Positions 14,868 through 56,949 of a stretch of DNA of 64,000 nt are shown here, in pieces. The stretch is from NCBI RefSeq assembly GCF_007829835.1, contig NZ_VIWP01000014.1, forward strand, positions 1 through 64,000, read 5' to 3'. The translations under genes and the position numbers were made by a program. Position 1 is the stretch's first letter. The number at the start of each line of letters is the position of its first letter. Under the pieces are notes generated by a model. The model searched no databases. It saw nothing but the letters and a program-made list of their open reading frames with translations, and was not told the DNA's origin. Source of the DNA: Neorhizobium alkalisoli. Its GTDB lineage: Bacteria > Pseudomonadota > Alphaproteobacteria > Rhizobiales > Rhizobiaceae.

Positions 14868-14950
14868 ACACCCGCGAATACCTGTTATGAGAAGCCGTTC
14901 CGCTCCGCCTGTCCTATCAAATGCTGACACAGGTCATGCGGAGACAGGAA

Positions 14951-37581: not shown

Positions 37582-38994
37582 CTAGCTGAGGTTGCGGGCA
37601 AGGAAGCTGTAGAAGCGCGCATCGTCGGCACGCGCCACGTTGAGCCTGATGCCCGATGCGGCGGGATTGCCCTTGTCTAGGCAGAACACGCTTCCCGGAG
37701 CGATAAAAATGCTTTCCTGGGCCCCGCGCCGGGCGATCTCGATATCGCCGATCTTCGGCGGCATAAGCAGGTAGAGGTAATAACCGCCGCCATTGCCGGC
37801 AAACACGTCATATCCCTCGTGTCTCAGCGTCTGCAGAACCCGGGCGGCCGCGCCGTCGATCCGGTTGGACAGCCGCTTGAGATGTCGGTCGTAATGCCCT
37901 TCCACCAGAAGCCGGTGGATCAGCCGCTCCACATGGCCCGAACTGTTGACGGTCGTCAGCATCTTCAATTCGGCCAGCGCGCCGATCTGCTGCCTGTTGC
38001 CGACGATGTAGCCGGCGCGCAGACTGGCCGAGAGCGTTTTCGAAAATGTGCCAACCGACATGACGCGATTGAGCTGGTCGAGCGTCACCAGCCGGCTCGG
38101 TACGCTCGGCGCCAGATCGGTGAACGGATCATCCTCGACGATCGTCACATTGTGGACGGCAGCGGCGTTCAGAAGCGCATGTGCCACCGGCAGGCTGGTC
38201 GAGCTGCCAGTCGGGTTGTGACCGATCGACTGGGTGAAGAACAGCCGCGGCCGCTCCGCGGAAGCCTTTGCGATGAAATCGTCGACGTCAGGTCCTTCCG
38301 GTGTGCGGCGAACACCGAGCACACGCACCTGCGCCAGTTTCAGCTTGGCAAACAGCGGATAATAACCCGGTTCGTCGACCAAAACGATATCGCCGGGTGA
38401 GAGAAATGCTCGGACAATCAGGTCGAGCGCGTGGTTTGCGCCGAAGGTCAGCAGGATTTCCTCTTCCGATGCCTTCAGATGCTGGGCCGCAAGGCGCCTT
38501 GCGATCGCGGCCCTCAGAGCCGGAAACCCCAGCGCCGAGCCATAGGCATCCGTGCCGACCGTGTAATCGCGGCCGAAAAAACCGAGATGGCGCTTGATCT
38601 CCGATTCTTCCGTCCAAGATGGCGGTGGCCGGCCATCACCGACGCGGATTTCAAAATTCTCCTCGAGCTGGGCACTCAGAAGCGAGGCGATATCGACCGC
38701 CTCGGCCACATGCCGCGGCCGTACGCTGCGGTCGGCATCGGCGGGCAGGCGCACTTCGAAACCCGCGCCCGGCCGAGACGCGGCATAACCGGACGCCACC
38801 AGCCGGTCATAGACCTCGATGATCGTATTCTTGGAAACGCCGTGCAGCTCGGCGGCCTTGCGGATCGACATCAGCCGGGTTCCCGCAGGCGGTTCGCCGC
38901 GCAGGATTTCCTCGCAAAATCGGGCCGTCAGCTTTTCCACCAAGGTGCCGGATCGCCTGAGATTGTCTTCTGTCCCCGCCAACCACGCCTCCAT
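37582..38994 (-). CDS. MocR-type regulator (GntR winged helix fused to PLP aminotransferase fold)
   Basis: A 470-residue MocR/PdxR-class protein: a GntR helix-turn-helix at about 20-85 (SIRKAAELHGVSKNTIIEVYDRL) and a fold-type I aminotransferase domain at about 140-470. The PLP pocket shows GPxG-like FGANHALDLI, HNPTG (for the cofactor phosphate and substrate), EDDPFTDL with the pyridine-binding Asp and the Schiff-base lysine in GTFSKTLSASLRAGY. ATG at 38994 is preferred. It is divergent from the HMG-CoA reductase operon with an inverted repeat between them, so it is the likely regulator of that operon. Confidence 0.93.
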   Translation of the reverse strand: MEAWLAGTEDNLRRSGTLVEKLTARFCEEILRGEPPAGTRLMSIRKAAELHGVSKNTIIEVYDRLVASGYAASRPGAGFEVRLPADADRSVRPRHVAEAVDIASLLSAQLEENFEIRVGDGRPPPSWTEESEIKRHLGFFGRDYTVGTDAYGSALGFPALRAAIARRLAAQHLKASEEEILLTFGANHALDLIVRAFLSPGDIVLVDEPGYYPLFAKLKLAQVRVLGVRRTPEGPDVDDFIAKASAERPRLFFTQSIGHNPTGSSTSLPVAHALLNAAAVHNVTIVEDDPFTDLAPSVPSRLVTLDQLNRVMSVGTFSKTLSASLRAGYIVGNRQQIGALAELKMLTTVNSSGHVERLIHRLLVEGHYDRHLKRLSNRIDGAAARVLQTLRHEGYDVFAGNGGGYYLYLLMPPKIGDIEIARRGAQESIFIAPGSVFCLDKGNPAASGIRLNVARADDARFYSFLARNLS

Positions 38995-38998
38995 AATG

Positions 38999-39033
38999 GG
39001 TACAGTTTGGTGACAATTTTTCAAATCTGTACC
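38999..39033. promoter_or_regulatory. Inverted-repeat operator between MocR and HMG-CoA reductase genes
   Basis: GGTACAG (38999-39005) and CTGTACC (39027-39033) are perfect inverted copies; including the next bases the arms read GGTACAGTTTG and GGTACAGATTT on opposite strands, centres 28 bp (about 2.7 turns) apart. The element begins 5 bp upstream of the MocR ATG and ends 62 bp before the HMG-CoA reductase start, covering the position expected for both promoters. It is the natural candidate MocR binding site. Confidence 0.55.
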
Positions 39034-39094: not shown

Positions 39095-40411
39095 TTGGCC
39101 GCAAATCAGGAAAACGGAGCGCGCTCCGTCAATTCCCGTCTGGAGAACCTGCGCAATCTGGCGCCGGTCGAGCGTCTGGCGCGTGTTGCCGAAGCCACGG
39201 CCCTCGGTGATGCCGATCGGCAGGTTTTCGAACGTGGCGGACTGCCGCTGACACTTGCAAACGGCATGATCGAGAACGTCATCGGCACGTTCGAACTGCC
39301 GATCGGCATCGCCACCAATTTCACGGTCAACGGCAAGGATTACCTCGTGCCGATGGCCGTCGAGGAACCTTCGGTCGTCGCCGCTGCCTCCTATATGGCG
39401 CGGCTTGCCCGCGTGGGCGGCGGCTTCATCACCTCCAGCACCGGCCCGGTCATGCGGGCACAGATCCAGGTGCTTAATATCACCGATCCACATGGTGCCC
39501 GCGCCCGTATCCTTGCCGAACGTGACGCGATCATCGCGGCCGCCAATGCCAAGGACAAGGTACTGATCGGGCTCGGCGGCGGCTGCAAGGATGTCGAGGT
39601 GCATGTCTTCGACGACACGCCGATCGGGCCGATGATGATCGCCCATCTGATCGTCGATGTGCGCGATGCGATGGGCGCCAATACGGTCAACACCATGGCC
39701 GAAACGGTGGCGCCTCTCATCGAAAAAATCACGGGTGGCGTGGTGCGCCTGCGCATCCTCTCTAATTTTGCCGATCTTCGCCTCGCGCGCGCCATGGTGC
39801 GATTGTCGCCGGAAACGCTGAAGACCTCGGAATACGAGGGCGAGAGGATCGCCCGCGGCATCGTCGAGGCCTGCGCCTTCGCGATTGTCGATCCCTACCG
39901 TGCCGCCACGCACAACAAAGGCATCATGAACGGCATCGACCCGGTCGTCGTCGCCACCGGCAATGACTGGCGCGCAATCGAGGCCGGCGCACATGCCTGG
40001 GCGGCCCGCAACGGCCGTTATACCTCGCTGACGAAATGGGAAATCGACACGAGCGGCCATCTGGTCGGCACGCTGGAGCTGCCGATGGCGCTCGGCCTCG
40101 TTGGCGGTGCGACAAAGACCCATCCGGCGGCTCAGGCAGCCTTGAAAATCCTCGGCGTCACCTCGGCGCAGGAACTGGCCGAGGTCACCACCGCTGTTGG
40201 CCTGGCACAGAACATGGCGGCACTGCGGGCGCTCGCGACCGAAGGCATTCAGCGCGGCCACATGGCGCTGCATGCCCGCAATATCGCAATCGTTGCCGGC
40301 GCGGTCGGTGACGAGATCGAGACGGTCGCGGCCGAACTCGCCGCCCATCATGATGTTCGCGTGGATCGGGCCAAGGAACTGCTGGAGACGATGCGCGCCG
40401 GCAAGGCGTGA
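39095..40411 (+). CDS. mvaA: Hydroxymethylglutaryl-CoA reductase, class II (degradative)
   Basis: A 438-residue enzyme interconverting mevalonate and HMG-CoA. All four catalytic residues known from the Pseudomonas mevalonii enzyme (E83, K267, D283, H381) are present at a constant offset of eight: E91, K275, D291 and H389. D154, in the place of Asp146 there, indicates NAD(H) use, hence the oxidative direction. ENVIG (60-64), [10 protein letters not shown] (191-200) and [16 protein letters not shown] (325-340) are family motifs. There is no membrane anchor. Start is TTG at 39095 with GGGAGG 5 nt upstream; the ATG at 39082 is out of frame. It heads the plus-strand operon divergent from MocR. Confidence 0.94.
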
Positions 40412-40528
40412 AGCTCGACTAGGTCACGGCGCCGTGTTCCGCGCGGCGCCAGGGATAGCTTTTCATCTGCGGGATTTACTGCTTTATCAAAGAGATAGTT
40501 CAGCAGACCCACATTCTGGGAGGAGCAG

Positions 40529-41770
40529 ATGGTAGATTTGAACGAATTCAGCAACTGGCCCGCGAGCCGGCCCGGCCCGCTTTCGGGCGTCAAAATTCTC
40601 GACATCACGCGCGTGGTGGCCGGACCATTCTGCTCGATGATGATGGCCGATCTCGGCGCCACCGTCATCAAGGTCGAACATCCCGACGAGCCGGATTACG
40701 CCCGCACCTTCCCGCCCTTCGTCAATTCGGACGAAGAGCAGCTCAGCGCATTTTTCGCCCAGTTTAATCGCAACAAGCTGGCCGTCACCCTCAACCTCAA
40801 GACACCGGAGGGGAAGGCGCTGCTGCACAAGCTGGTCGCCAAGGTGGATATTCTCGTCGAGAATTTCCGCCCCGGCACGATGGAAAAGCTCGGCCTCGGT
40901 TATGAGGCGCTGCGCGAGATCAATCCGAAACTGGTCTATACCGCGATCAGCGGCTTTGGCCGCACCGGCCCGAATGCCTCGAAGCCGGCCTATGACAATA
41001 CCGGCCAGGCGGCGGGCGGCCTCTGGTCGATGAACGGTTATCCCGACCGGCCGCCGGTCAGGGTCGGCACGATCATCGGCGATCTCGCTGCCTCGCTTTA
41101 TGCAGCGATCGGCACGGTCGCAGCGCTGCGCGAGGCCGAACGCACCGGCAAGGGCCAGGTGGTCGACGTTTCGCAGCAGGATTCGGTACTGACGCTCACC
41201 GAAAACGCCGTCGTGCGCTACACCGCCCAGAAGGAAGTCGCAGCCCCGCTCGGCAACGACCATCCTTTCGTGCGGCCCTATGGCCAGTTTCCCTGCAAGG
41301 ACGGTTACGTCTTTTTCGGCGGTTACACCGACAAATTCTGGGCGATCACCTGCGCGATGTTCGGCGAGCCCGACATGGCGAAGGACCCGGCCATCGACAC
41401 GATGGAAAAGCGCTTCGACCCCGTCACCGCCCAGACCAGGGTAACCCCGCTGCTCGAACGCTGGTTCTCCGCCTATACAAAGGCCGAACTCGAAGACATG
41501 GCCGGCGACAAGGTGCCGCTCAGCGCGATCAAGACGATTGCCGAAGTGGTCGAGGACCCGCATATCGCCGCCCGCAACATGATCGTCAACGTGCCGATCG
41601 CCGGCAAACTGATCGGCATGTTCGGCTCTCCGATCAAGCTGTCGGGACAGGAACAGGTGCCGCATGAAAAGGCGCCAGCCCCCGGCGAACACAATGCGCT
41701 CGTCTTCGAAAAGCTCGTCGGCATCGACGCGCATGAACTCGAAAAGCTCAAGTCGGCGGGAGCGATCTGA
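40529..41770 (+). CDS. Family III CoA-transferase (CaiB/BaiF type), HMG operon
   Basis: A 413-residue formyl-CoA-transferase-like enzyme. It opens SGVKILDITRVVAGPFCSMMMADLGATVIKVE, has the ENFRPGTMEKLGLGYE segment, and D185 (GTIIGDLAASL) is the expected nucleophile. ATG follows GGGAGGAGC. The stop codon shares one base with the next start (TGATG). In this operon a plausible role is charging free 3-hydroxy-3-methylglutarate or 3-methylglutaconate with CoA from succinyl-CoA, comparable to human SUGCT. That role is inferred from context; the family alone does not give the acceptor. A 117-nt gap separates it from mvaA and holds a 12-bp palindrome at 40427-40438. Confidence 0.92.
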   Translation: MVDLNEFSNWPASRPGPLSGVKILDITRVVAGPFCSMMMADLGATVIKVEHPDEPDYARTFPPFVNSDEEQLSAFFAQFNRNKLAVTLNLKTPEGKALLHKLVAKVDILVENFRPGTMEKLGLGYEALREINPKLVYTAISGFGRTGPNASKPAYDNTGQAAGGLWSMNGYPDRPPVRVGTIIGDLAASLYAAIGTVAALREAERTGKGQVVDVSQQDSVLTLTENAVVRYTAQKEVAAPLGNDHPFVRPYGQFPCKDGYVFFGGYTDKFWAITCAMFGEPDMAKDPAIDTMEKRFDPVTAQTRVTPLLERWFSAYTKAELEDMAGDKVPLSAIKTIAEVVEDPHIAARNMIVNVPIAGKLIGMFGSPIKLSGQEQVPHEKAPAPGEHNALVFEKLVGIDAHELEKLKSAGAI

Positions 41771-42528
41771 TGGCGATCGATTACCATAAGGACGGCACCG
41801 TCGCGACCATCCGCCTCAACCGGCCGGACAAGCTGAATGCGCTGTCGCTTGCCATGTACGACGATCTCGGTCGCGCCTTTGCCGAGGCAAATGAAGATGA
41901 TGGCGTGCATGCCGTCGTGCTGGCCGGTGCCGGCGACCGCGCCTTCTGCGTCGGCGCGGATCTCACCGAATCCATTCCGGCGCTGGCCGAAGGCCGTTTT
42001 GACATTTCTCACTGGGATCCGGCACATCTGAAGGTCGAGGGCTTTTATAAGCCCGTCATCGGCGCCATCCGAGGCCTGTGCATCGGCGGTGGTTTCGAGA
42101 TCATGCTGGCGACCGATATCCGCATTGCAGCGAAGGACGCGCAGTTTCAGCTGCCGGAGGCGGGCCACGGTTTCGTGCCGGCCGGTGGCACGCTGGTGCG
42201 GCTGGTGCGGCAGATCGGTTATGCCCATGCGATGGAGATCATGCTGACCACCGCGCGTTTTACGGCAGCCGACATGCTCGCCCGTGGCGTCGTCAATCGC
42301 GTGGTCGAAGCAGAAGAAGTCGAGCCTACAGCGCAGGAGATCGCCGCCCGCATCGCGAAACTCAGCCCGAGCGCGGTGCAAACGATCAAGGAAGCAGCGC
42401 TGACGCTGCAGCACCTGCCGCTGAAGGAGGCCTTTCATCAGGAAGCGGCTCTCGGCCAGCGCACCTTTACCAGCGAAGATGCAAGACGCGGCCTCGCCGC
42501 CTTTGCCGAACGGGGAAAAGCGAAGTGA
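41770..42528 (+). CDS. Enoyl-CoA hydratase (crotonase) family protein, HMG operon
   Basis: A 252-residue crotonase. FCVGADLTE and RGLCIGGGFEIMLATD form the oxyanion hole; FQLPEAGHGFVPAGG carries the first catalytic Glu. It overlaps the CoA-transferase stop by one base and its own stop is overlapped by the HMG-CoA lyase GTG, so three genes are coupled. Next to HMG-CoA lyase the obvious candidate reaction is hydration of 3-methylglutaconyl-CoA to HMG-CoA, but this is inference; other crotonase reactions are possible. Confidence 0.92.
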   Translation: MAIDYHKDGTVATIRLNRPDKLNALSLAMYDDLGRAFAEANEDDGVHAVVLAGAGDRAFCVGADLTESIPALAEGRFDISHWDPAHLKVEGFYKPVIGAIRGLCIGGGFEIMLATDIRIAAKDAQFQLPEAGHGFVPAGGTLVRLVRQIGYAHAMEIMLTTARFTAADMLARGVVNRVVEAEEVEPTAQEIAARIAKLSPSAVQTIKEAALTLQHLPLKEAFHQEAALGQRTFTSEDARRGLAAFAERGKAK

Positions 42529-43433
42529 CTTTCCGCCCCTTCCCCGATGTGACGATCGTCGAAGTCGGCCCGCGCGACGGGCTGCAGAACGAAAAACGCA
42601 TTGTCCCCACGGAAGAAAAACTGGCGTTGATCGAGCTCCTCAAGGGCGCCCGCCTGCCGCGGCTGGAGATCACCGCCTTCGTTTCCCCGAAATGGGTGCC
42701 GCAGATGGCCGATCACGAGGAAATCCTGCGCCGGACGCCGGCAGCGGACGGGCTGATCCGCTCGGTCCTCGTGCCGAACGAACGCGGCGCGCTTGCGGCG
42801 ATTGCGATCGGCGTCGAGGAACTGGCGATCTTTACCAGCGCCTCCGAAACATTCGCTGAAAAGAATATCAACTGCTCCATCGCCGAAAGCCTGGAGCGGT
42901 TCGAGCCGGTGGCCGCGCTTGCCCGCGAGCACGGCATCAGGTTGCGTGGCTACGTCTCGTGCACGGTCGAATGCCCCTATGAGGGGCCGATCAGACCGCA
43001 GGCGGCGACCGGGGTCGCAAATGCGCTGGCCGATCTCGGCTGTGTCGAGATTTCGCTTGCCGACACGATCGGCCGGGCGACGCCTGAGAGCGTCGACGCC
43101 ATGCTTTCGGCCGTCAAGGCGAGCCTTACGGCCGAAAAGCTGGCCTGCCATTTCCACGATACGTTCGGCCATGCGCTCGACAATGTCGATGTCGCGCTCG
43201 GCCACGGCATCCGCGTCTTCGACAGCGCGATCAGCGGCCTCGGCGGCTGCCCATATGCGCCGGGCGCGGCCGGAAATCTCAGCACCTTGCCGCTTGTAAA
43301 ACACCTTGAGGAGAAGGGGTTTTCGACCGGCATCGATATCGAACGACTGCTGCAGGCGGAGGAGTTTGCAGCCGGTCTTCGGCAGGGGAATACGGAAATC
43401 CAGGCCGGCGACGGGAGGCGTGTGTCCGGCTGA
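42525..43433 (+). CDS. mvaB: Hydroxymethylglutaryl-CoA lyase
   Basis: A 302-residue DRE-TIM metallolyase that splits HMG-CoA into acetoacetate and acetyl-CoA. Visible are VGPRDGLQNE (14-23, with R17 and D18), ADTIGRATP, the metal ligands in HFHDTFG (H209, H211) and the family signature SGLGGCPYAPGAAGN with the catalytic loop C242. The start is GTG at 42525, overlapping the crotonase TGA, which gives the family N terminus directly. Length is normal. Together with mvaA it makes a complete mevalonate-to-acetoacetate route. Confidence 0.94.
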   Translation: MTFRPFPDVTIVEVGPRDGLQNEKRIVPTEEKLALIELLKGARLPRLEITAFVSPKWVPQMADHEEILRRTPAADGLIRSVLVPNERGALAAIAIGVEELAIFTSASETFAEKNINCSIAESLERFEPVAALAREHGIRLRGYVSCTVECPYEGPIRPQAATGVANALADLGCVEISLADTIGRATPESVDAMLSAVKASLTAEKLACHFHDTFGHALDNVDVALGHGIRVFDSAISGLGGCPYAPGAAGNLSTLPLVKHLEEKGFSTGIDIERLLQAEEFAAGLRQGNTEIQAGDGRRVSG

Positions 43434-43461
43434 CGACAGCAACACCAAAGGGAGGAACAGC

Positions 43462-44694
43462 ATGCGCAGCAAAATTCGGAACAAACTTCTTGGCAGTGCG
43501 GTCTTCCTGGCCGGACTCATCGCTTCATCCGCGACATTCGCGGAAGATGCAAAGATCAGCGACGATGTCGTCCGCATCGGCCTGATCGAGGACATGAGCG
43601 GCGTATATGCCGACATTACCGGCCCCGGCGCGGTCACCGCCGCCAAGATGGCCGTGGAGGAATTTGGCGGCACGGTTCTCGGCAAGAAGATCGAGATCGT
43701 TTCCGCCGACCACCAGAACAAGGCCGATATCGGCGGCGCCATCGCCCGCAAATGGTTCGACGAGGAAAAGGTCGATGCCATTCTCGACGTCGCTTCGTCC
43801 TCGCCGGCACTGGCGGCACTCGAGGTCGCCAAGCAGAAGAACAAGCTGATTGTGCTGAGCTCCCCCGGCTCGCTGCGCATCACAAACGAAGTCTGCGGCC
43901 CCTATGTCATGCACTGGGCCTACGATACCTATGCGATCGCCCACACGACCGGCCAGGCGCTGGTCGATAAGGGCCTCGACAAATGGTATTTCGTCACCGC
44001 CGATTATGCCTTTGGCCACGGGCTGGAAAAGGAAACCGGCGATCTTGTTCAAGCCCGCGGCGGCAAGGTTCTCGGCAGTACCCGCCTGCCGATCGGCACG
44101 ACCGATTTCGCCTCGGCACTGCTGACCGCGCAAGGCTCGGGTGCCAGCGTAGTGGCGCTTGCCAATGCCGGCTCCGACACGATTAATTCCGTCAAGCAGG
44201 CGGCCCAGTTCGGTCTCACCCAGGCCGGCCAGAAGCTCGCGACGCTCGGCGGCTTCATCAACGACATCCACGGCCTCGGGCTCGAAGAGGCACAGGGGCT
44301 GACGATCGTCGAAGCAAGCTACTGGGATCTCGACGAAAAGACCCGCGAATGGTCGAAGCGTTTCTTCGCCGAGCGCAAGGCCATGCCGAACATGCTGCAG
44401 ACCGGCACCTATTCCTCCGTCCTGCATTACCTGAAGGCGGTCAAGGAAGCCGGCACCGACGACACGGAAAAGGTGGCCGCAAAAATGCGCGAACTGCCGG
44501 TCAACGACGTCTTTTATCACAACGGCAAGATCCGCGAAGATGGCCGCATGATGCATGACATGTATCTGTTCGAGGTGAAGAAGCCGTCGGAATCCAAGGC
44601 GCCCTGGGATTATTACAAGCTTCTCGCCACGGTGCCGGGTGACAAGGCGTTTCAGCCGCTGTCGAAATCCACCTGCTCTCTTGTGAAGAAGTAA
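43462..44694 (+). CDS. Liv-type ABC transporter binding protein, HMG operon
   Basis: A 410-residue periplasmic binding protein of the branched-chain amino acid/amide class with a Sec signal peptide (about 28 residues, cleavage near TFA-EDA). ATG follows GGGAGGAAC. It is a paralogue of the binding protein at 45835 (shared EIV-ADHQNK, HWAYDT, TADYAFG, KKPSESK-PWDYY), roughly half identical by eye. No permease or ATPase follows directly, so it probably docks on the Liv transporter encoded at 47037-50668. As part of the mvaAB operon it may bring in a mevalonate-related organic acid. Confidence 0.92.
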   Translation: MRSKIRNKLLGSAVFLAGLIASSATFAEDAKISDDVVRIGLIEDMSGVYADITGPGAVTAAKMAVEEFGGTVLGKKIEIVSADHQNKADIGGAIARKWFDEEKVDAILDVASSSPALAALEVAKQKNKLIVLSSPGSLRITNEVCGPYVMHWAYDTYAIAHTTGQALVDKGLDKWYFVTADYAFGHGLEKETGDLVQARGGKVLGSTRLPIGTTDFASALLTAQGSGASVVALANAGSDTINSVKQAAQFGLTQAGQKLATLGGFINDIHGLGLEEAQGLTIVEASYWDLDEKTREWSKRFFAERKAMPNMLQTGTYSSVLHYLKAVKEAGTDDTEKVAAKMRELPVNDVFYHNGKIREDGRMMHDMYLFEVKKPSESKAPWDYYKLLATVPGDKAFQPLSKSTCSLVKK

Positions 44695-44709: not shown

Positions 44710-45633
44710 TCAGCTTCCCAGAAACGCATCCCGGTTGTCGTCCACGACCGCGGCAATGTAGTCGGCGACCGCGCGCACGCGCGGAACCCGGCTCATGTCG
44801 CGGTGGCGGACAAGGAAATAATGCCGGGTCAGCTGCACATCTTTGGCAAGCACGACCTCAAGCTCAGGCTGACGGCGAGCAATGAAATGCGGCAGGATGC
44901 AGAGCCCCTGCCCCTGCAAAGTCGCCGTCAGCTGCGCCGAAATGCTGGAACTCTGGAACCGCGGTTTTATGCCCGGATGCACATCGCCGAGATAGTCGAG
45001 CCCCGGCGCAAAAATCATGTCCTGGATATAACCGATGAACGGATGGAGGAGCAGGTCGTCCCGCTTCCTCACCGCCGGGCTAACCGCCAGGTAAGCCCGC
45101 GTGCCATAGATATTGAGCCGGTAATCGGTGATCTTCTCGATCTCGTAAGGCCCGCCCTTAGGCGGATCGAGCGAGATGGCGATATCGGCCTCCTTGCGCG
45201 ACAGCGACATGATCTGCTGGATCGTCACCAGTTCCAGCGACAGGTTGGGATGCTGGATGGTGAAATCACCGATCTGGTGCGCGAGGAAGAAGTTGGCGAT
45301 GCCTTCCGGCGCACTGAGCCGGACGACGCCCTGATGGGCGGCATTGCCCGAGGCGATATCCATCTGCAGGCGGTCGGCCTCGCTTTCCATCCGTTCGGCA
45401 GCGTCGATGAACCGCTGGCCGATGACGGTCAGCACGTAACCGCGCGGATTGCGCTCGAACAGCTTGACCTTGAGCGCGAATTCCAGCCGGTCGATACGGC
45501 GCGAGACGGTGGCATGGCTGGTGCGCAGGTGCCGGGCGGCGACCGAAAGCTGGCCGGTGCGGGCGACCGCCAGGAAATATTGCAGGTCGTCCCAGGTAAA
45601 ACCGGGATGGCCGAAACCGGGATTGCTGGTCAT
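44710..45633 (-). CDS. LysR family transcriptional regulator
   Basis: A 307-residue LysR regulator with a helix-turn-helix at about 15-60 (GQLSVAARHLRTSHATVSRRIDRLEFALKVKLFER) and an effector-binding domain from about 95. It is divergent from the Liv operon that begins at 45835 and convergent with the binding-protein gene ending at 44694. The 201-nt divergent region holds a CTGTTCA-N4-TGAACAG inverted repeat, so it probably regulates that Liv/GMC operon and itself. Confidence 0.93.
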   Translation of the reverse strand: MTSNPGFGHPGFTWDDLQYFLAVARTGQLSVAARHLRTSHATVSRRIDRLEFALKVKLFERNPRGYVLTVIGQRFIDAAERMESEADRLQMDIASGNAAHQGVVRLSAPEGIANFFLAHQIGDFTIQHPNLSLELVTIQQIMSLSRKEADIAISLDPPKGGPYEIEKITDYRLNIYGTRAYLAVSPAVRKRDDLLLHPFIGYIQDMIFAPGLDYLGDVHPGIKPRFQSSSISAQLTATLQGQGLCILPHFIARRQPELEVVLAKDVQLTRHYFLVRHRDMSRVPRVRAVADYIAAVVDDNRDAFLGS

Positions 45634-45660
45634 GCCGTCGCGCCGCCCAATCCTGTGTTT

Positions 45661-45788
45661 CTGTTCAAAAATGAACAGATGCTGTTTGCAATTAACAATG
45701 CGGCGCTTCTTGCGTCAACGGCCGTTTTACTGAACCATGCGGGCTGGAAAGGCTGCTTTGAGGAGGGCAGCCTGCCAATTTTGAACAG
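45661..45788. promoter_or_regulatory. LysR-type operator region of the Liv/GMC operon
   Basis: CTGTTCA-AAAA-TGAACAG (45661-45678) is a perfect inverted repeat 28 bp from the LysR start. The half-site TGAACAG recurs at 45782-45788, 47 bp before the Liv binding-protein gene. A strong dyad near the regulator plus a half-site near the target promoter is the usual recognition/activation arrangement of LysR proteins. Confidence 0.5.
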
Positions 45789-45834
45789 ACTTCGCGCCCG
45801 TTAGGGCATTCAGTCATCTCTGGGAGGAGATCTT

Positions 45835-47037
45835 ATGCGAAAGACGTTTCTGACGTCGCTGGCAGTCTTGCTGGCGAGTGGCACTGCATTTGCTCAAAGT
45901 GCATCTGACGGCAAAGTAAAGATCGGCATTCTGAACGATCAATCCGGCGTCTACGCCGATTTCGGCGGCAAGTCGTCGGTCGAGGCCGCCAAGATGGCGG
46001 TCGAGGATTTTGGCGGCAAGGTGCTGGGCGTACCGGTCGAGATCGTTGACGCCGACCATCAGAACAAGCCGGACGTCGCCTCCAACATTGCCCGCCAGTG
46101 GTATGACACCCAGCAGGTCGATGCGATCATGGACCTGACCACCTCATCCGTCGGCCTCGCCGTCCAGGCGCTGTCGGGTGAAAAGAAGAAGATCACCATC
46201 AATACCGGTGCGGCAACGACCGACCTGACCGGCAAGGCCTGCACGCCCTACGGCTTCCACTGGGCCTATGACACCCATGCGCTGGCTGTCGGCACCGGCG
46301 GGGCGCTCGTCAAGCAGGGCGGCGACAGCTGGTTCTTCCTGACCGCCGACTATGCCTTCGGTTATTCGCTGGAACAGCAGACTGGCGACTACGTCAAGGC
46401 CAATGGCGGCAAAGTGTTAGGCTCGGTGCGCCACCCGCTCTCCAGCCAGGACTTTTCGTCCTTCCTGCTGCAGGCACAGTCTTCCGGCGCCAAGGTGATC
46501 GGCCTTGCCAATGCCGGCCTCGACACCGCCAATTCGATCAAGCAGGCGGCCGAATTCGGCATCGTCCAGGGCGGCCAGAAGCTGGCGGCGCTGCTCTTCA
46601 CGCTGGCCGAAGTCAACGGTCTCGGGCTTGAAGCAGCCCAAGGCCTGACCTTGACCGAAGGCTATTACTGGAACCTCGACGACAAGAGCCGAGAGTTCGG
46701 CAAGAAATTCTTCGCCCGCACCAAGAAGATGCCGAACATGATTCATGCCGGCACCTATTCCGCCGTAACTCAATATCTGAAAGCCGTTCAGAAGGCCGGC
46801 AGCGACGACAGCGATGCGGTCGCCAAGGCGCTGCACGAAATGCCGGTCGATGACTTTTTCGGCCGCGGCGGCACCGTCGGCGCCAATGGAAGGATGATCC
46901 ACGACATGTATCTTCTGCAAGTGAAGAAGCCGAGCGAAAGCAAGGAACCCTGGGACTATTACAACGTGCTTGCCACCATTCCCGGCAAGGAAGCCTATCT
47001 CGATCCGGCCAAGGCCGGCTGCCCGCTGGTGAAATAA
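45835..47037 (+). CDS. Liv-type ABC transporter binding protein
   Basis: A 400-residue exported binding protein with a signal peptide of about 21 residues (cleavage near AFA-QSA). Its fold is the branched-chain amino acid/amide type (VKIGILNDQSGVYADFGGKSSVEAAKMAVEDFGG). GGGAGGAGA precedes the ATG. It is the first gene of the operon with both ATPases and both permeases (last base of its stop shared with the ATPase start, TAATG). It is a paralogue of the 43462 protein, so one membrane complex may serve two ligands. Confidence 0.93.
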   Translation: MRKTFLTSLAVLLASGTAFAQSASDGKVKIGILNDQSGVYADFGGKSSVEAAKMAVEDFGGKVLGVPVEIVDADHQNKPDVASNIARQWYDTQQVDAIMDLTTSSVGLAVQALSGEKKKITINTGAATTDLTGKACTPYGFHWAYDTHALAVGTGGALVKQGGDSWFFLTADYAFGYSLEQQTGDYVKANGGKVLGSVRHPLSSQDFSSFLLQAQSSGAKVIGLANAGLDTANSIKQAAEFGIVQGGQKLAALLFTLAEVNGLGLEAAQGLTLTEGYYWNLDDKSREFGKKFFARTKKMPNMIHAGTYSAVTQYLKAVQKAGSDDSDAVAKALHEMPVDDFFGRGGTVGANGRMIHDMYLLQVKKPSESKEPWDYYNVLATIPGKEAYLDPAKAGCPLVK

Positions 47038-47819
47038 TGGCAGTCCTTGCAAAGGAACTGCACGAGGAGCCGCGGGTGGTCTTGTCCGCCCGCGGTCTCT
47101 CCAAAAGCTTTGGCGCCTTCGCGGCTGTCAACAATGTCGATCTCGATATCAGGCATGCCCGTGTTCATGCACTGATCGGCCCGAACGGTGCCGGCAAGAC
47201 CACGGTGTTCAATCTCCTCACCAAATTCCTGCAGCCGACTGCGGGTTCTATTACCTTGCTCGGGACGGATATTACCAAAACGCCGGCCGACAAGGTGGCG
47301 CGCATGGGCCTCGTCCGTTCTTTCCAGATCTCGGCAGTCTTTCCCTATCTCTCGGTGCTCGACAATGTCCGTGTCGCGCTGCAGCGGCCGGGCGGGCTTT
47401 CGACCCAGTTCTGGCTGCCCATGTCCTCGCTCGACCGGCTGAACGAGCAGGCCGACGAGCTGATCGAGACGGTCGGCCTTAAACGCGAGCGCAATGCAAT
47501 CGCAGCCGACCTTTCCTACGGCCGCAAACGCGTGCTGGAAATCGCAACGACGCTGGCGCTCGATCCAAAGGTACTTCTGCTCGACGAACCGATGGCCGGC
47601 ATGGGACAGGAGGATATCGGCACCGTTTCCAACATCATCCGCGATGTCGCAAAGACCCGCGCGGTGCTGATGGTGGAACACAATCTCTCGGTCGTCTCCG
47701 ACATCTGCCACCAGGTCACAGTTCTGCAGCGCGGCGAGATCCTGGCCGAGGGAGATTATGCGACGGTCGCACAGGATGAGCGCGTGCGGCTCGCCTATAT
47801 GGGCACGGAGGACGCTTGA
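47037..47819 (+). CDS. Liv-type ABC transporter ATP-binding protein, LivG-like
   Basis: A 260-residue ATPase: Walker A GPNGAGKTT, signature LSYGRKR (the LivG form), Walker B LLLDEPMAGM and switch His (VEHNLSVV). The C-terminal tail RVRLAYMGTEDA is typical of LivG. Its start overlaps the binding-protein stop by one base and it abuts the LivF-like gene directly. It couples ATP hydrolysis to the LivH/LivM permease pair downstream. Confidence 0.94.
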   Translation: MAVLAKELHEEPRVVLSARGLSKSFGAFAAVNNVDLDIRHARVHALIGPNGAGKTTVFNLLTKFLQPTAGSITLLGTDITKTPADKVARMGLVRSFQISAVFPYLSVLDNVRVALQRPGGLSTQFWLPMSSLDRLNEQADELIETVGLKRERNAIAADLSYGRKRVLEIATTLALDPKVLLLDEPMAGMGQEDIGTVSNIIRDVAKTRAVLMVEHNLSVVSDICHQVTVLQRGEILAEGDYATVAQDERVRLAYMGTEDA

Positions 47820-48524
47820 ATGGCCGCACCCCTGCTGCAGGTTTCCAATCTCAATGCCTGGTATGGCGAAAGCCATATACTGCACGGCGTCGACATGACC
47901 GTGCGTGAAGGCGAAACGATCACCATTCTCGGCCGCAATGGCGTCGGCAAGACGACGACGCTGCGCACAATCATGGGCATCATCCGCGAGCGCAAGGGCG
48001 AAATCCGTTTCAACGGCCGTGACATGGCAGGCGTGCCGCTGCATCGCACCGCCCATGTGGGCCTCGGCTTCGTACCGGAAGAGCGCGGCATCTTTTCGAC
48101 CCTGACGGTCGAGGAAAACCTGATGCTGCCGCCGGTCGTGGCCGAGGGTGGCATGCCGGTTGCCGAGATCTACGAGCTTTTCCCGAACCTCTATGAGCGC
48201 CGCGGCAGCCCCGGCACAAAACTGTCCGGCGGCGAACAGCAGATGCTGGCCATCGCCCGCATCCTGCGCACCGGCGTCAAACTGCTGATCCTCGATGAAC
48301 CAACCGAGGGGCTCGCCCCCGTCATCGTTCAGCGCATCGGCGAAATCTTAAAGACGCTGAAGGAACGCGGCATGACGGTGCTGATGGTCGAGCAGAACTT
48401 TCGCTTCGCCAGCCGCATCGCCGATCGTTTTTACCTGATGGACCACGGCAAGATGGTCGCAGACTTCCCGGTCGGCGAACTGCCGGAGCGCATGGACACG
48501 CTGCATAAGGTTCTGGGGGTGTGA
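47820..48524 (+). CDS. Liv-type ABC transporter ATP-binding protein, LivF-like
   Basis: A 234-residue ATPase of the short LivF class: Walker A GRNGVGKTT, VPEERGIFSTLTVEENL, signature LSGGEQQM, Walker B LILDEPTEGLAP and MVEQNFRFA. Its ATG follows the LivG stop without a gap. A 126-bp palindromic repeat element separates it from the permease genes, so expression of ATPases and permeases may be uneven. Confidence 0.94.
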   Translation: MAAPLLQVSNLNAWYGESHILHGVDMTVREGETITILGRNGVGKTTTLRTIMGIIRERKGEIRFNGRDMAGVPLHRTAHVGLGFVPEERGIFSTLTVEENLMLPPVVAEGGMPVAEIYELFPNLYERRGSPGTKLSGGEQQMLAIARILRTGVKLLILDEPTEGLAPVIVQRIGEILKTLKERGMTVLMVEQNFRFASRIADRFYLMDHGKMVADFPVGELPERMDTLHKVLGV

Positions 48525-48586
48525 TGATGGGCAGGATTTCAGGATCGATTGCAGCCATCAATTCCACGCTGACGGGTGCGGTCTTT

Positions 48587-48712
48587 GCCCCTCACCCTAA
48601 CCCTCTCCCCGCAAGCGGGGAGAGGGGACGTGCCTCGCTTGAGGCAAAAGAGTGCGGCAGATGCCCTTCTCCCCGCACGCGGGGAGAAGGTGGCGGCAGC
48701 CGGATGAGGGGC
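48587..48712. repeat. RIME-like rhizobial palindromic repeat element
   Basis: A 126-bp element bounded by GCCCCTCA (48587-48594) and its inverse TGAGGGGC (48705-48712). It holds two strong hairpins: CCTCTCCCC/GGGGAGAGG (48602-48625) and CCTTCTCCCC/GGGGAGAAGG (48665-48690). This composition is that of the common rhizobial intergenic mosaic elements (RIME type), an identification from memory. It lies between the LivF and LivH genes of one operon and could attenuate or process the mRNA. Confidence 0.75.
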
Positions 48713-48753
48713 AAATCATACCATCTTGCGTCTCTGCCAAGGAGCCTCACCCC

Positions 48754-49641
48754 ATGACGATGATCTTCGGCATCCCGCTTCAGGCCTTTCTCGGCCAGCT
48801 GCTGATCGGCCTGATCAACGGCTCCTTCTACGCGCTGCTCAGCCTCGGCCTCGCCGTCATCTTCGGCCTGCTGCGCGTCATCAACTTCGCCCATGGCGCG
48901 CAATATATGCTCGGTGCCTTCGTCGCGATGCTGATGCTGCAATATTTCGGCATCAACTACTGGTTCGCGCTGTTTCTGGCGCCGATCGTGGTCGGCCTGT
49001 TCGGCGCCGTCACAGAACGTTTTCTCCTGTCGCGGCTCTATAAGCTCGACCACCTTTACGGCCTGCTCTTCACCTTCGGCCTGGCGCTCACCATCGAAGG
49101 CACGTTCCGCTATCTCTACGGCTCCTCCGGCCAGCCCTATGCGCCGCCGCAGCAGCTGACCGGCGCCACCAATCTCGGCTTCATGTTCCTGCCGATCTAT
49201 CGCGGCTGGGTCGTGATCGTGTCGCTGATTGCCTGTATCGGCACCTGGCTTCTGATCGAAAAGACCAAACTCGGCGCCTATCTGCGCGCCGCGACCGAAA
49301 ACGCCACGCTGGTTCAGGCCTTCGGTGTCAACGTGCCGGTTCTCCTGACGCTCACCTACGCACTCGGCGCCGGCCTTGCGGCCTTCGCCGGTGTGCTGGC
49401 TGCCCCCGTCTATCAGGTCTCGCCGCTGATGGGCTCCAACATCATCATCGTCGTTTTCGCGGTCGTCGTGGTCGGCGGCATGGGCTCGATCATGGGGGCG
49501 ATCGTCACCGGCTACATGCTGGGCATTGCCGAAGGCATGACCAAGGTCTTTTACCCGGAAGCCTCCAACATCGTCATCTTCGTGATCATGGCGATCGTGC
49601 TTCTCATCCGCCCGGCCGGACTTTTCGGCCGGGACGTTTAA
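48754..49641 (+). CDS. Liv-type ABC transporter permease, LivH-like
   Basis: A 295-residue inner-membrane permease with about eight hydrophobic segments. It opens FLGQLLIGLINGSFYALLSLGLAVIFGLLRVINFAHG, the hallmark of LivH, and ends with LLIRPAGLFGR. ATG at 48754 with AAGGAG 9 nt upstream. It forms the channel with the LivM-like protein that follows after 13 nt. Confidence 0.93.
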   Translation: MTMIFGIPLQAFLGQLLIGLINGSFYALLSLGLAVIFGLLRVINFAHGAQYMLGAFVAMLMLQYFGINYWFALFLAPIVVGLFGAVTERFLLSRLYKLDHLYGLLFTFGLALTIEGTFRYLYGSSGQPYAPPQQLTGATNLGFMFLPIYRGWVVIVSLIACIGTWLLIEKTKLGAYLRAATENATLVQAFGVNVPVLLTLTYALGAGLAAFAGVLAAPVYQVSPLMGSNIIIVVFAVVVVGGMGSIMGAIVTGYMLGIAEGMTKVFYPEASNIVIFVIMAIVLLIRPAGLFGRDV

Positions 49642-49654
49642 GCGAGGTGGCAAA

Positions 49655-50668
49655 ATGAGCGACGTGATCCACAATTCCTCCGCCACCTCTACCGCGAGCG
49701 GCCGCACCGAACGGTCGGCGACCGCATCGAAAACCTATGCGGCCTTCCTTGTGATCGGCCTTCTGCTGTTGCTGATCGCGCCGGCTTTCCTCTATCCGAT
49801 CTTCCTGATGAAGCTTCTGTGCTTCGCCCTCTTTGCCTGCGCCTTCAATCTTCTGCTCGGTTATACCGGCCTCCTCTCCTTCGGCCACGCGACCTTTTTC
49901 GGTGGCGCAGCCTATTTCACAGCGCATGTGGTTAAGGAATGGGGTTTTCCCCCTGAGATCGGCATTCTGGTGGGAGCCGCGGGAGCGGCCTTCCTCGGCC
50001 TGATCATGGGCTTCTTCGCCATCCGCCGGCAGGGCATTTATTTCGCAATGATCACGCTCGCACTGTCGCAGATGTTCTTCTTCTTCTGCCTGCAGGCATC
50101 GTTCACCCATGGCGAGGACGGCATCCAGTCCGTACCCCGCGGCCATCTCTTCGGTTTCATCGATCTCGCGAACACGACCAACATGTATTACTTCGTGCTC
50201 GGCGTGTTCCTGATCGGCATGATCGTCATCTGGCGTTTCATCAACTCGCCTTTCGGCATGATCCTGAAATCGATCCGCGAGAACGAGCAGCGCGCCATTT
50301 CGCTCGGCTATTCCGTTGCCCGCTACAAGCTCGGCGCCTTCGTCATGTCGGCGGCCTTGGCAGGACTTGCCGGCGGCACTAAGGCGCTGGTCTTCCAGTT
50401 CGCGACGCTGACCGATGTCGGCTGGCAGATGTCTGGCGAGGTGATCCTGATGACCTTGCTCGGCGGCATCGGCACGCTGATCGGCCCGATCTTCGGCGCT
50501 GGGCTTGTCGTGACCTTGCAGAACTATCTAGCGACCTCGCAATTCCCGGTGACGATAATCACCGGCGTGGTCTTCATGATCTGCGTTCTGCTCTTCCGGC
50601 GCGGCATCATCGGCGAATTCTACGCCTCGCGCCTCGGCCGCAAACTTGGTTTCGAGCATCGGCGCTGA
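49655..50668 (+). CDS. Liv-type ABC transporter permease, LivM-like
   Basis: A 337-residue inner-membrane permease, LivM class. A charged cytoplasmic N terminus of about 25 residues precedes several helices; the motif LLLGYTGLLSFGHATFFGGAAYF and the EAA-like SIRENEQRAISLGYSVARYKL loop are typical. GAGGTGGC precedes the ATG. It is followed after 12 nt by the GMC oxidoreductase gene, so transport and oxidation are in one transcript. Confidence 0.93.
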   Translation: MSDVIHNSSATSTASGRTERSATASKTYAAFLVIGLLLLLIAPAFLYPIFLMKLLCFALFACAFNLLLGYTGLLSFGHATFFGGAAYFTAHVVKEWGFPPEIGILVGAAGAAFLGLIMGFFAIRRQGIYFAMITLALSQMFFFFCLQASFTHGEDGIQSVPRGHLFGFIDLANTTNMYYFVLGVFLIGMIVIWRFINSPFGMILKSIRENEQRAISLGYSVARYKLGAFVMSAALAGLAGGTKALVFQFATLTDVGWQMSGEVILMTLLGGIGTLIGPIFGAGLVVTLQNYLATSQFPVTIITGVVFMICVLLFRRGIIGEFYASRLGRKLGFEHRR

Positions 50669-50680
50669 TCGGCTGAAATC

Positions 50681-52276
50681 ATGGAAACCTATGACTATAT
50701 CATCATCGGTGCCGGCAGCGCCGGCTGCGTGCTGGCCAACCGCCTCTCGGCCGACGCCCGCAACCGTGTCCTGCTGCTGGAAGCCGGCGGCAATGACAAT
50801 TACCACTGGGTGCATATCCCCGTCGGTTATCTCTATTGCATCAACAACCCGCGCACCGACTGGTGTTTTACAACGGAAAACGAAGCAGGCCTCAACGGCC
50901 GCTCCCTCTCCTACCCGCGCGGAAAACTACTCGGCGGCTGCTCCTCGATAAACGGCATGATCTACATGCGCGGCCAGGCGCGAGATTACGATCTCTGGCG
51001 GCAGATGGGCTGCACCGGCTGGGGCTGGGACGACGTTCTGCCGCTCTTCCGCAAGAGCCAGGATTTTTACAAGGGCGCCGACGAGATGCATGGCGAAGGC
51101 GGCGAATGGCGGGTGGAAAAATCCCGCGTCCGCTGGGCCGTGCTCGACGCCTTCCAGAAAGCCGCGGAAGAGGCCGGCATCCCCGTCACACCGGATTTCA
51201 ACCGCGGCGACAATGAAGGCTCCGGTTATTTCGACGTCAACCAGCGCTCCGGCATCCGCTGGAACACCTCGAAAGCGTTCTTGCGCCCTGCAATGAAGCG
51301 CCCCAATCTGAACGTCCTTACCAAGGCCCATGTCCGCCGGCTGATCGTTGAGGGCGGTGAGGTGAAGGGCGTCGAATTCCAGCATGACGGCGTGGCAAAA
51401 ACCGCCCATGCTCGACGCGAAACGGTCCTCTCCGCCGGCGCGATCGGCACACCGCATGTTCTCGAGCTGTCGGGCATCGGCCGCGGTGACGTGCTGTCGG
51501 ACGCCGGTATCGATGTGGTGAAGGAGGTAAAGGCCGTTGGCGAAAACCTGCAGGATCATCTGCAACTACGCCTCGTTTACAAGGTGACCGGCGTGCCGAC
51601 CTTGAACGAAAAGGCCTCCCGCCTGCTCGGCAAGGCGGCGATCGGGCTCGAATATGCCCTGAAACGCTCAGGCCCGATGTCGATGGCGCCAAGCCAGCTC
51701 GGCATTTTCACCCGCTCCGGCGCCGACAAGGAAACCGCCGATCTCGAATATCACGTCCAGCCCGTCTCTCTCGACAGGTTCGGCGAGCCGGTCCATTCCT
51801 TCCCGGCCATGACGGCAAGCGTCTGCAATCTGCGCCCGGAAAGCCGCGGCTCAGTGCACCTGAAAGGACCGGATTTCGCCGCAGCCCCCGCAATTCGCCC
51901 GAACTATCTTTCCTCGGCCGCCGATCGCGACGTGGCGGTACGCTCGATCAGGCTCACCCGTCAAATCGTCCGCCAGCCGGCCTTTGCGCGCTATCACCCG
52001 GAGGAATACAAGCCCGGCCCGGCCTATGAGACCGATGCAGATCTCGAAAGAGCAGCTGGCGAGATCGGCACGACGATCTTTCATCCGGTCGGCACGGCCC
52101 GCATGGGGGCCGACCCCGACAGTGTCGTCGATCCGCGGCTAAAGCTACGGGCGCTCGGAAAACTGCGCATCGCCGATGCCTCGATCATGCCGAACATCAC
52201 CTCCGGCAACACCAATTCGCCGACGATCATGATCGCCGAAAAGGCGGCCGAAATGATCCTCGCCGACAACCGCTAA
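50681..52276 (+). CDS. GMC family oxidoreductase, choline-dehydrogenase-like (first copy)
   Basis: A 531-residue FAD alcohol dehydrogenase/oxidase. The ADP-binding motif [16 protein letters not shown] is at 8-23, LLEAGG follows, the GMC signature is [20 protein letters not shown] and the C-terminal active-site pair lies in [10 protein letters not shown] (His) and SGNTNSPT (Asn). No signal peptide. It is closely related to the GMC protein at 55269. It overlaps the codon before the next gene and is cotranscribed with the Liv transporter, so it probably oxidises an alcohol group of the imported compound. Confidence 0.93.
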
Positions 52277-52296
52277 TGACAGGAAGGAAAAACGAG

Positions 52297-56870: not shown

Positions 56871-56949
56871 CACGTCCGACTTGCCGCATTCATCAAAATG
56901 GAGCATCCGCAACCCTTGCGGACCACCCGGCTGGCGAGAGTTTTTTTGC

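What the first reader, a model, noticed from the sequence alone, without database searches (positions are those of the whole stretch)
39095..44694. Compact operon that could funnel mevalonate, HMG and methylglutaconate to acetoacetate
Class II HMG-CoA reductase (E91, K275, D291, H389 all at a constant +8 offset from the Pseudomonas mevalonii enzyme) and HMG-CoA lyase together make the known mevalonate degradation route. Between them are a family III CoA-transferase and a crotonase not needed for mevalonate itself, all tightly coupled, plus a dedicated binding protein. My inference is that three inputs converge on HMG-CoA: mevalonate through the reductase, free 3-hydroxy-3-methylglutarate through the CoA-transferase, and 3-methylglutaconate through CoA-transferase plus hydratase. 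I know of no characterised operon of this exact composition.
Basis: partly seen in the sequence, partly recalled or inferred. Interest (0 to 1): 0.72.

Follow-up and report, generated by a model that had tools for sequence, protein, structure and literature searches.

The report
Mevalonate-degrading operon with extra intake branch
A rhizobia-like bacterium carries a mevalonate-breakdown operon with two extra enzymes that, in the relatives examined, sit beside the mevalonate enzyme and probably turn a mevalonate-derived acid, perhaps the acyl group of fungal iron-carriers (siderophores), into mevalonate for food.

Summary
The genes are as described: class II HMG-CoA reductase (HMGR), family III CoA-transferase (CoAT), crotonase, HMG-CoA lyase, binding protein, beside a divergent MocR regulator. 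CoAT and crotonase form a recurrent module. Of 16 CoAT loci found without using HMGR, 16 have HMGR within 7 kb and 16 a hydratase (15 crotonase, one an unrelated hot-dog pair). CoAT and crotonase co-evolve; HMGR does not, and in a same-genus genome a distant HMGR stands in. The lyase is nearby in 14 of 16.

I therefore favour entry upstream: anhydromevalonate -> anhydromevalonyl-CoA -> mevalonyl-CoA -> mevalonate -> HMGR -> lyase, the reverse of fungal SidI/SidH. 10 of 22 CoAT loci carry an amide hydrolase, and several a peptide-type transporter and a flavin/Fe-S reductase. In one same-genus genome a hydroxamate-siderophore uptake operon with an esterase adjoins. This suggests fungal siderophore acyl groups as the source. 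The window genome has similar genes, but on another contig.

The parts
37582..39024 (-). MocR-type (GntR-aminotransferase) regulator, divergent from the operon
   Evidence: Pfam Aminotran_1_2 + GntR; a MocR homologue lies beside HMGR in 30 of the 37 loci L001-L037, most of them without CoAT; a GAF/PucR-type regulator lies beside HMGR instead in 8 CoAT loci
39095..40411 (+). class II (degradative) HMG-CoA reductase, TTG start after GGGAGG
   Evidence: TIGR00532 above cut-off; aligned to 1qax, query residues 11-434; E91/K275/D291/H389 present
40529..41770 (+). family III CoA-transferase (CoAT)
   Evidence: PF02515 415.9 bits; D156, presumed catalytic Asp, invariant in the 14 aligned sequences; below the cut-offs of all 7 NCBIfam models it matched
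41770..42528 (+). crotonase-type enoyl-CoA hydratase
   Evidence: PF00378; E110 and E130, presumed catalytic Glu pair, invariant in 17 of 17; pairwise identities track CoAT, r = 0.92
42525..43433 (+). HMG-CoA lyase, GTG start overlapping the crotonase stop
   Evidence: NF004283 above cut-off; GLGGCPYAPGA loop at residue 238; aligns to lyase chains 1ydn and 2cw6
43462..44694 (+). periplasmic binding protein SBP1 (Peripla_BP_6) that often accompanies CoAT-crotonase in relatives
   Evidence: PF13458; its family (SBP1/SBP2 type) in 10 CoAT loci besides the window, and in 3 of 47 CoAT-less HMGR stretches (2 of 45 distinct loci)
44710..45633 (-). LysR regulator between the two transport units; role in this system uncertain
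   Evidence: PF00126/PF03466; no orthologue seen next to CoAT in the 22 CoAT loci, only weak matches
45835..50668 (+). separate branched-chain-type ABC operon (SBP2, two ATPases, two permeases); could supply the membrane part for SBP1, but this is a guess
   Evidence: ORFs; Pfam of SBP2, one ATPase and one permease; not recurrent as a unit next to CoAT

Best explanation
It is a mevalonate catabolic operon extended by a CoA-transferase/hydratase module that makes mevalonate from its dehydrated form. Proposed steps: (1) anhydromevalonate (5-hydroxy-3-methylpent-2-enoate), most likely released from fungal hydroxamate siderophores (fusarinines, coprogens) by esterase and amide-hydrolase steps whose likely genes lie elsewhere in this genome, is taken up or formed inside; (2) CoAT moves CoA onto it; (3) the crotonase hydrates anhydromevalonyl-CoA to mevalonyl-CoA; (4) CoAT passes that CoA to the next anhydromevalonate, freeing mevalonate (the CaiB/CaiD carnitine logic, recalled); (5) HMGR oxidises mevalonate with CoA and 2 NAD+ to HMG-CoA; (6) the lyase gives acetyl-CoA and acetoacetate. 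It is the fungal SidI/SidH acyl pathway run backwards. Shown: gene identities, presence of the residues taken as catalytic, strict linkage CoAT + hydratase + HMGR, co-evolution of CoAT with crotonase, HMGR exchange, amide-hydrolase/transporter/reductase neighbours in a part of the loci. Inferred: the substrate, steps 1-4, and the siderophore source; steps 5-6 follow from the known families.
For: Linkage: family sample, CoAT in 12 of 297 genomes, HMGR in 41 of 297, all 12 inside the 41 (own genome left out, hypergeometric P 7e-11, not corrected for kinship). Loci found without HMGR: HMGR 16 of 16, hydratase 16 of 16, lyase 14 of 16. 29 of 35 HMGR genomes lack CoAT, so CoAT is not needed for mevalonate itself. 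Exchange: the CoAT tree groups window+L106+L107 (98/95), while the HMGR tree puts L107 across a 100/100 branch in the other clade; r of pairwise identities CoAT-crotonase 0.92, HMGR-CoAT 0.45. Hydratase swap: a hot-dog pair instead of crotonase in two Pseudomonas loci and G785. Amide side: amide-hydrolase genes near CoAT in 10 of 22 loci: M20 amidohydrolase in 7, amidase in 2, HyuAB upstream of and on the strand of CoAT-crotonase in Rhodococcus. Reductase (PNPOx-FNR-2Fe2S) in 9 of 21 CoAT genomes against 0 of 29 HMGR-only genomes. Siderophore: FhuBCD + TonB receptor + esterase directly downstream of the lyase in G335, same genus. SidI/SidH make anhydromevalonyl-CoA from mevalonate (PMC3709128, passages).
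Against: No substrate is measured. A FhuB gene lies within 30 kb of CoAT in only 3 of 21 genomes (0 of 29 controls near HMGR, Fisher P 0.07). In the window genome the Fhu/esterase set and the amidase/reductase set lie on contig C1, the operon on C14. 12 of 22 CoAT loci show no amide hydrolase in the stretches read. The reductase was picked because it lay beside CoAT, so its contrast is after the fact. The crotonase profile ranks SidH 40th among PDB chains, behind 5jbw/5jbx (LiuC by recall; 30th-31st). TctABC/TRAP transporters in some CoAT loci would also suit dicarboxylates such as HMG, though they occur in HMGR-only loci too. Linked HMGR may reflect shared regulation of two parallel routes. 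CoAT searches used strict E-values, so diverged CoAT loci without HMGR would be missed.
Confidence: 0.5

Rival explanations
1. One reading: CoAT activates free 3-hydroxy-3-methylglutarate and 3-methylglutaconate with succinyl-CoA; the crotonase hydrates 3-methylglutaconyl-CoA to HMG-CoA; three inputs converge on HMG-CoA lyase. 3-Methylglutaconate could come from ferrichrome A (its acyl group, recalled), HMG from plant HMG-glycosides (recalled).
For: Lyase is nearby in 14 of 16 independently found CoAT loci. The CoAT profile matches the chain deposited as succinate-hydroxymethylglutarate CoA-transferase well (9br6, 268.4 bits, 4th of 35). 5jbw/5jbx (LiuC by recall) are among the crotonase matches and rank above SidH. 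Dicarboxylate-type transporters occur in some loci.
Against: Does not explain why HMGR is present in 16 of 16 loci and is kept by exchange. CoAT scores 283.6 against a cut-off of 750 for the NCBIfam succinate-glutarate CoA-transferase model.
Confidence: 0.25
2. Dual-use module: the same CoAT and hydratase handle both anhydromevalonate (to mevalonate) and 3-methylglutaconate (to HMG-CoA), serving mixed fungal hydroxamate siderophores.
For: Both acids carry the same 3-methyl-2-enoate end (chemistry, recalled); HMGR and lyase are both usually present; amide hydrolases recur.
Against: No evidence for either activity; one main substrate is the simpler reading of a strict HMGR link.
Confidence: 0.15
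3. CoAT and crotonase act on an unrelated acid (for example a short branched acyl group from peptides or plant conjugates) and only share a transporter or regulator with mevalonate breakdown.
For: Transporters and regulators around the core vary widely; the crotonase matches many models, none above cut-off in the 25 of 73 shown.
Against: Physical linkage persists across the window's own family, other Alphaproteobacteria, Pseudomonas, Variovorax, Peristeroidobacter and Rhodococcus, with different transporters and two unrelated regulator types.
Confidence: 0.1

Closest known systems
Pseudomonas mevalonii mevalonate degradation (mvaA/mvaB; recalled)
   Same: Class II HMGR plus HMG-CoA lyase; HMGR aligns to 1qax almost end to end
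   Different: CoAT and crotonase lie between HMGR and lyase, and SBP1 follows
Fungal SidI/SidH/SidF anhydromevalonyl branch of fusarinine synthesis (PMC3709128, passages seen)
   Same: Same proposed intermediates mevalonyl-CoA and anhydromevalonyl-CoA; SidH (7oeq) is also matched by the crotonase profile
   Different: Opposite direction; CoA-transferase instead of a ligase; SidH is only the 40th closest PDB chain
CaiB/CaiD carnitine system (recalled)
   Same: Adjacent family III CoA-transferase and crotonase hydratase; same shuttle logic proposed
   Different: CoAT is far below the L-carnitine CoA-transferase cut-off (133.6 against 413)
SUGCT / succinate-hydroxymethylglutarate CoA-transferase
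   Same: Same family; 9br6 matched with 268.4 bits
   Different: Below the NCBIfam SucGlutTfsCaiB cut-off; YfdE, a formyl-CoA-transferase chain and a CaiB/BaiF chain match slightly better
Siderophore use as a carbon source (Pseudomonas FC1 on ferrichrome A; Mesorhizobium loti LU on deferrioxamine B)
   Same: Soil/rhizobial bacteria degrading hydroxamate siderophores for carbon (PMC10866069 passages; PMC5805875 whole text)
   Different: What I read reports hydrolysis of peptide/amide bonds to simpler hydroxamates; no pathway for the acyl group is given there

Membership tests
Degradative (class II) HMG-CoA reductase | Family model above curated cut-off | tested here: met
   TIGR00532 442.5 bits against 259.95
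Degradative (class II) HMG-CoA reductase | Catalytic Glu/Lys/Asp/His | tested here: met
   E91, K275, D291, H389 present, aligned with 1qax; catalytic assignment recalled
Degradative (class II) HMG-CoA reductase | NAD-dependent oxidation of mevalonate | not testable with these tools
   Needs an enzyme assay
HMG-CoA lyase | Family model above cut-off and Cys loop | tested here: met
   NF004283 392.6 against 246; GLGGCPYAPGA at residue 238; role of the loop recalled
Family III CoA-transferase | PF02515 and catalytic Asp | tested here: met
   415.9 bits; D156 invariant in 14 of 14; catalytic assignment recalled
Succinate-glutarate/HMG CoA-transferase (SUGCT type) | NF052585 above curated cut-off | tested here: not met
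   283.6 bits against 750
Succinyl-CoA:mesaconate CoA-transferase | NF041294 above curated cut-off | tested here: not met
   309.2 bits against 700
Crotonase hydratase | PF00378 with two catalytic Glu | tested here: met
   205.4 bits; E110 and E130 invariant in 17 of 17; catalytic assignment recalled
3-Methylglutaconyl-CoA hydratase (AUH/LiuC) | Closest relationship to AUH/LiuC among crotonases | tested here: inconclusive
   Profile ranks 5jbw/5jbx (deposited as 3-hydroxybutyryl-CoA dehydratase; LiuC by recall) 30th-31st; AUH not seen by name in the 60 of 176 matches shown
Mevalonyl-CoA hydratase (SidH) | Closest relationship to SidH among crotonases | tested here: inconclusive
   7oeq 151.3 bits, 40th; many generic hydratases score higher
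Mevalonate degradation operon | HMGR and HMG-CoA lyase together on one strand | tested here: met
   39095-43433, same strand; co-transcription not tested
Siderophore acyl-group catabolic cluster (proposed) | Hydroxamate siderophore uptake and hydrolysis genes in the same locus | tested here: inconclusive
   Present in L107/G335; absent from the window, homologues on contig C1 of G000

The most novel reading that the evidence does not exclude
A bacterial pathway, undescribed in what I searched, that eats the anhydromevalonyl groups of fungal hydroxamate siderophores (fusarinines, coprogens) by running the fungal SidI/SidH route backwards with an ATP-free CoA-transferase/hydratase shuttle into mevalonate, HMG-CoA and acetoacetate; in some rhizobia-like genomes it is physically joined to Fhu-type siderophore uptake, an esterase and an amide hydrolase, so that a fungal competitor's siderophore becomes both iron and carbon.
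Probability: 0.42. Interest if true: 0.78.

Novelty: new variant of a known kind. Interest (0 to 1): 0.6.

Why it matters
Mevalonate breakdown is known from P. mevalonii (recalled), but for CoA-transferase/hydratase pairs fixed beside HMGR I found no explanation in the ten paper searches made. If they feed anhydromevalonate, the cluster is a marker for bacteria that consume fungal siderophores and gives a direct genetic test of what happens to fungal siderophore carbon in the rhizosphere. It would also supply enzymes (mevalonyl-CoA-forming hydratase, CoA-transferase) of use in mevalonate chemistry.

Tried and rejected
Tried without gain: paper searches for HMG (meglutol) breakdown, mevalonate catabolism with lyase and operon (no paper), lyase + CoA-transferase + Pseudomonas, P. 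mevalonii and SUGCT structure gave nothing on this gene set in the rows listed. PDB profile searches with crotonase and CoAT orthologues did not single out a substrate. Considered and dropped: itaconate/mesaconate route (CoAT below the mesaconate CoA-transferase cut-off, and the lyase passes the HMG-CoA lyase model); carnitine route; the ABC operon 45835-50668 as part of the system (not recurrent next to CoAT). Fhu proximity alone is weak (3 of 21 against 0 of 29, P 0.07); contig breaks could hide proximity in either set.

Counts and what was left out: L084's CoAT is split by a frame change, so that locus was left out of the pairwise-identity and tree sets; the three hot-dog loci lack crotonase and also fall outside them. 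L109 gave no ORF in my first caller and was re-read. The 47 control stretches are 45 distinct loci (L001 = L143, L006 = L152) and L017/L020 are 97% alike; L006/L152 lie in a genome (G590) that has CoAT elsewhere. The 29 family controls are the 40 HMGR+ genomes other than the own, less the 11 with CoAT. CoAT thresholds (1e-130, 1e-110, 1e-100) were chosen by me. Flanks beyond about 10 kb were fetched for some CoAT genomes only. M20 was not looked for in a 3.3-kb unfetched gap of G616. A weak FecCD-like match (29%) 15-17 kb from CoAT in G539 was not counted.
Full report
WHAT IS THERE. HMGR runs 39095-40411 (TTG start behind GGGAGG), CoAT 40529-41770, crotonase 41770-42528, HMG-CoA lyase 42525-43433 (GTG) and a Peripla_BP_6 binding protein (SBP1) 43462-44694. 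HMGR passes the degradative-reductase model (442.5 bits against 259.95) and the lyase its model (392.6 against 246). CoAT carries D156 in the expected place, invariant in 14 of 14 aligned sequences, and the crotonase E110 and E130, invariant in 17 of 17. That these are catalytic is recalled knowledge of the families. The unit is tight from CoAT to lyase, but 117 bp separate HMGR from CoAT. A MocR-type regulator (37582-39024) diverges from HMGR. Downstream of SBP1 lie a LysR gene on the other strand and a separate ABC operon.

IS THE GENE SET MORE THAN CHANCE. I looked for CoAT orthologues without reference to HMGR (counts include the own genome): 2 of 289 class genomes, 12 of 297 family genomes, 5 of 398 phylum genomes, 3 of them already in the family set, and 2 plasmid records. 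Without the own genome this gives 16 loci (L084, L085, L106-L117, L140, L141). HMGR is within 7 kb of CoAT in 16 of 16, a hydratase beside CoAT or within about 2 kb in 16 of 16, and a lyase in the same stretch in 14 of 16, missing in L117 and L140. Six more CoAT loci (L025, L027, L034, L060, L068, L118) were reached through HMGR and are biased by that; with them the counts are HMGR 22 of 22, hydratase 22 of 22 (19 crotonase, 3 hot-dog), lyase 17 of 22. In the family sample HMGR occurs in 41 of 297 genomes and all 12 CoAT genomes lie among them; leaving out the own genome, the hypergeometric chance is 7e-11, without correction for kinship. The reverse does not hold: 29 of 35 HMGR genomes lack CoAT at E 1e-100, so mevalonate itself does not need it.

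THE MODULE IS MOBILE RELATIVE TO HMGR. Over 19 loci (window included), pairwise identities of CoAT and crotonase correlate at r = 0.92, HMGR and CoAT at 0.45; 43 of 171 locus pairs have CoAT at 75% or more and HMGR at 62% or less, against 1 in the reverse direction. The CoAT tree groups the window with L106 and L107 (98/95), while the HMGR tree puts L107, from the same genus, across a 100/100 branch with the other HMGRs. In L107 a GAF/PucR-type regulator (domain type by Pfam on its homologue in L060) and that distant HMGR lie directly upstream of CoAT-crotonase-lyase. So an HMGR is kept even when its lineage is exchanged. In L025, L027 and L141 no crotonase is found in the stretch and a hot-dog protein (FAS1_DH_region) with a 131-residue partner accompanies CoAT: the hydration step is apparently kept with an unrelated enzyme.

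WHERE DOES THE MODULE FEED IN. A CoAT/hydratase pair that makes HMG-CoA from HMG or 3-methylglutaconate needs only the lyase. The data show HMGR as the more constant neighbour; but a lyase also serves leucine breakdown (recalled) and can be supplied from elsewhere, so its absence from a locus says little. The simplest reading (inference) is that the module's product is mevalonate. The acid that a CoA-transferase and an enoyl-CoA hydratase turn into mevalonate is anhydromevalonate. Fungi make anhydromevalonyl-CoA from mevalonate with SidI and SidH for fusarinine- and coprogen-type siderophores (PMC3709128, passages). The bacterial module would run this backwards, with CoAT recycling CoA from mevalonyl-CoA to the next anhydromevalonate.

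NEIGHBOURS OF COAT LOCI. Recurrent families were compared between CoAT loci (24 stretches: 22 loci, the window and one second stretch of L084's record) and 47 CoAT-less HMGR stretches, 45 of them distinct. A peptide-type binding protein (SBP_bac_5), an M20 amidohydrolase (TIGR01891 188.2 bits, cut-off 153.75) and a Dpp permease lie beside CoAT-crotonase in L107 and L109-L113 at 73% identity or more, and binding protein plus M20 near G352's locus (L171): 7 of 22 loci. The families of these genes have no member in the 47 control stretches at 45% identity. In Rhizobium sp. CC-CFT758 a similar transporter (61-72%) is followed by amidase-signature gene pieces, in G409 an amidase relative (65%) lies behind MocR, and in Rhodococcus pseudokoreensis HyuA/HyuB genes lie directly upstream of, and on the same strand as, CoAT-crotonase; they match caprolactamase models best, below cut-off. 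So 10 of 22 loci have an amide-hydrolase gene of one of three unrelated kinds, and 12 show none in what was read. A PNPOx-FNR-2Fe2S fusion is found in 9 of 21 CoAT genomes and 0 of 29 HMGR-only family genomes (Fisher P 1e-4; within the family 8 of 12 against 0 of 29), within 17 kb of CoAT in seven of those genomes (positions) and near it in CC-CFT758. This gene was chosen because it lay beside CoAT, and kinship is not corrected. Sugar-type ABC genes with a strictosidine-synthase/SMP-30-like domain, and TRAP/Tct transporters, occur in HMGR-only loci too and so say little about CoAT.

SIDEROPHORE LINK. In G335 (L107), a genome of the window's genus, the lyase gene is followed by a convergent operon: FhuB-type fused permease (728 bits, cut-off 554), FhuD- and FhuC-like genes (below their cut-offs), a PF00756 esterase and a TonB siderophore receptor (TIGR01783 293.6, cut-off 223.5). 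FhuB homologues lie within 30 kb of CoAT in 3 of 21 CoAT genomes (G335, G532, G486; 12 of 21 have FhuB; the G486 cluster also has the esterase) and within 30 kb of HMGR in 0 of 29 controls, 11 of which have FhuB; this contrast alone is weak (P 0.07). The window genome has a Fhu/esterase set at C1:174-181 kb (esterase 72%, FhuB 76% to G335's; the FhuB match spans one TGA that I did not examine) and a peptide-SBP/amidase/reductase set at C1:550-559 kb, the amidase 87-90% and reductase 79% identical to those beside the CC-CFT758 operon. So likely parts are in the cell but not in the window. Use of hydroxamate siderophores as carbon is reported for soil and rhizobial bacteria (PMC10866069, passages; PMC5805875, whole text).

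LITERATURE. Ten full-text searches listed no paper whose title or abstract start describes a bacterial CoA-transferase/hydratase beside degradative HMGR or anhydromevalonate breakdown. Only listed rows were seen, and subscription journals are mostly not held, so this is not proof of absence.

VERDICT. Confidence: functional module with HMGR about 0.95; entry upstream of HMGR about 0.6; anhydromevalonate as substrate about 0.5, from fungal siderophores about 0.42.

Noticed in passing
window 6592-10793 and 14921-18995: Two hydantoinase/oxoprolinase A/B-like gene pairs (Pfam for both A genes and the first B gene; the second B gene by tblastn only), near a second, distant CoA-transferase III (22695-23852, -) and crotonase (21922-22698, -).
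   Followed up: partly
window 50681-53193: GMC oxidoreductase and a 3-hydroxyisobutyrate-dehydrogenase-like gene behind the SBP2 ABC operon; a second GMC oxidoreductase (55269-57188, -) and another crotonase (56950-57723, -) follow.
   Followed up: no
L084 15221-16458: In Rhizobium sp. CC-CFT758 the CoAT gene is split by a frame change and is not annotated; it is unclear whether this is decay or a sequencing error.
   Followed up: no
L106 4205-6319, L108, L114-L116: ABC permease fused to a strictosidine-synthase/SMP-30-like domain in a sugar-type transporter operon beside HMGR; possibly a lactonase for mevalonolactone. Some HMGR-only loci (L142, L143, L146) have more distant versions (57%).
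   Followed up: partly
L087 9229-11846: In the haloarchaeon Salinigranum marinum degradative HMGR overlaps an AtuA-family (acyclic terpene utilisation) gene by 4 bp; Halalkalicoccus shows the same two annotations under its HMGR match.
   Followed up: no
G486 C4:18810, C3:56124, C1:1876633: Three copies of the PNPOx-FNR-2Fe2S fusion in one genome; function unknown, possibly hydroxamate or ferric-siderophore reduction.
   Followed up: no
window 44710-50668: SBP1 (operon) and SBP2 (own ABC operon) fall in one family on either side of a LysR gene; SBP1 may borrow the SBP2 permease.
   Followed up: no
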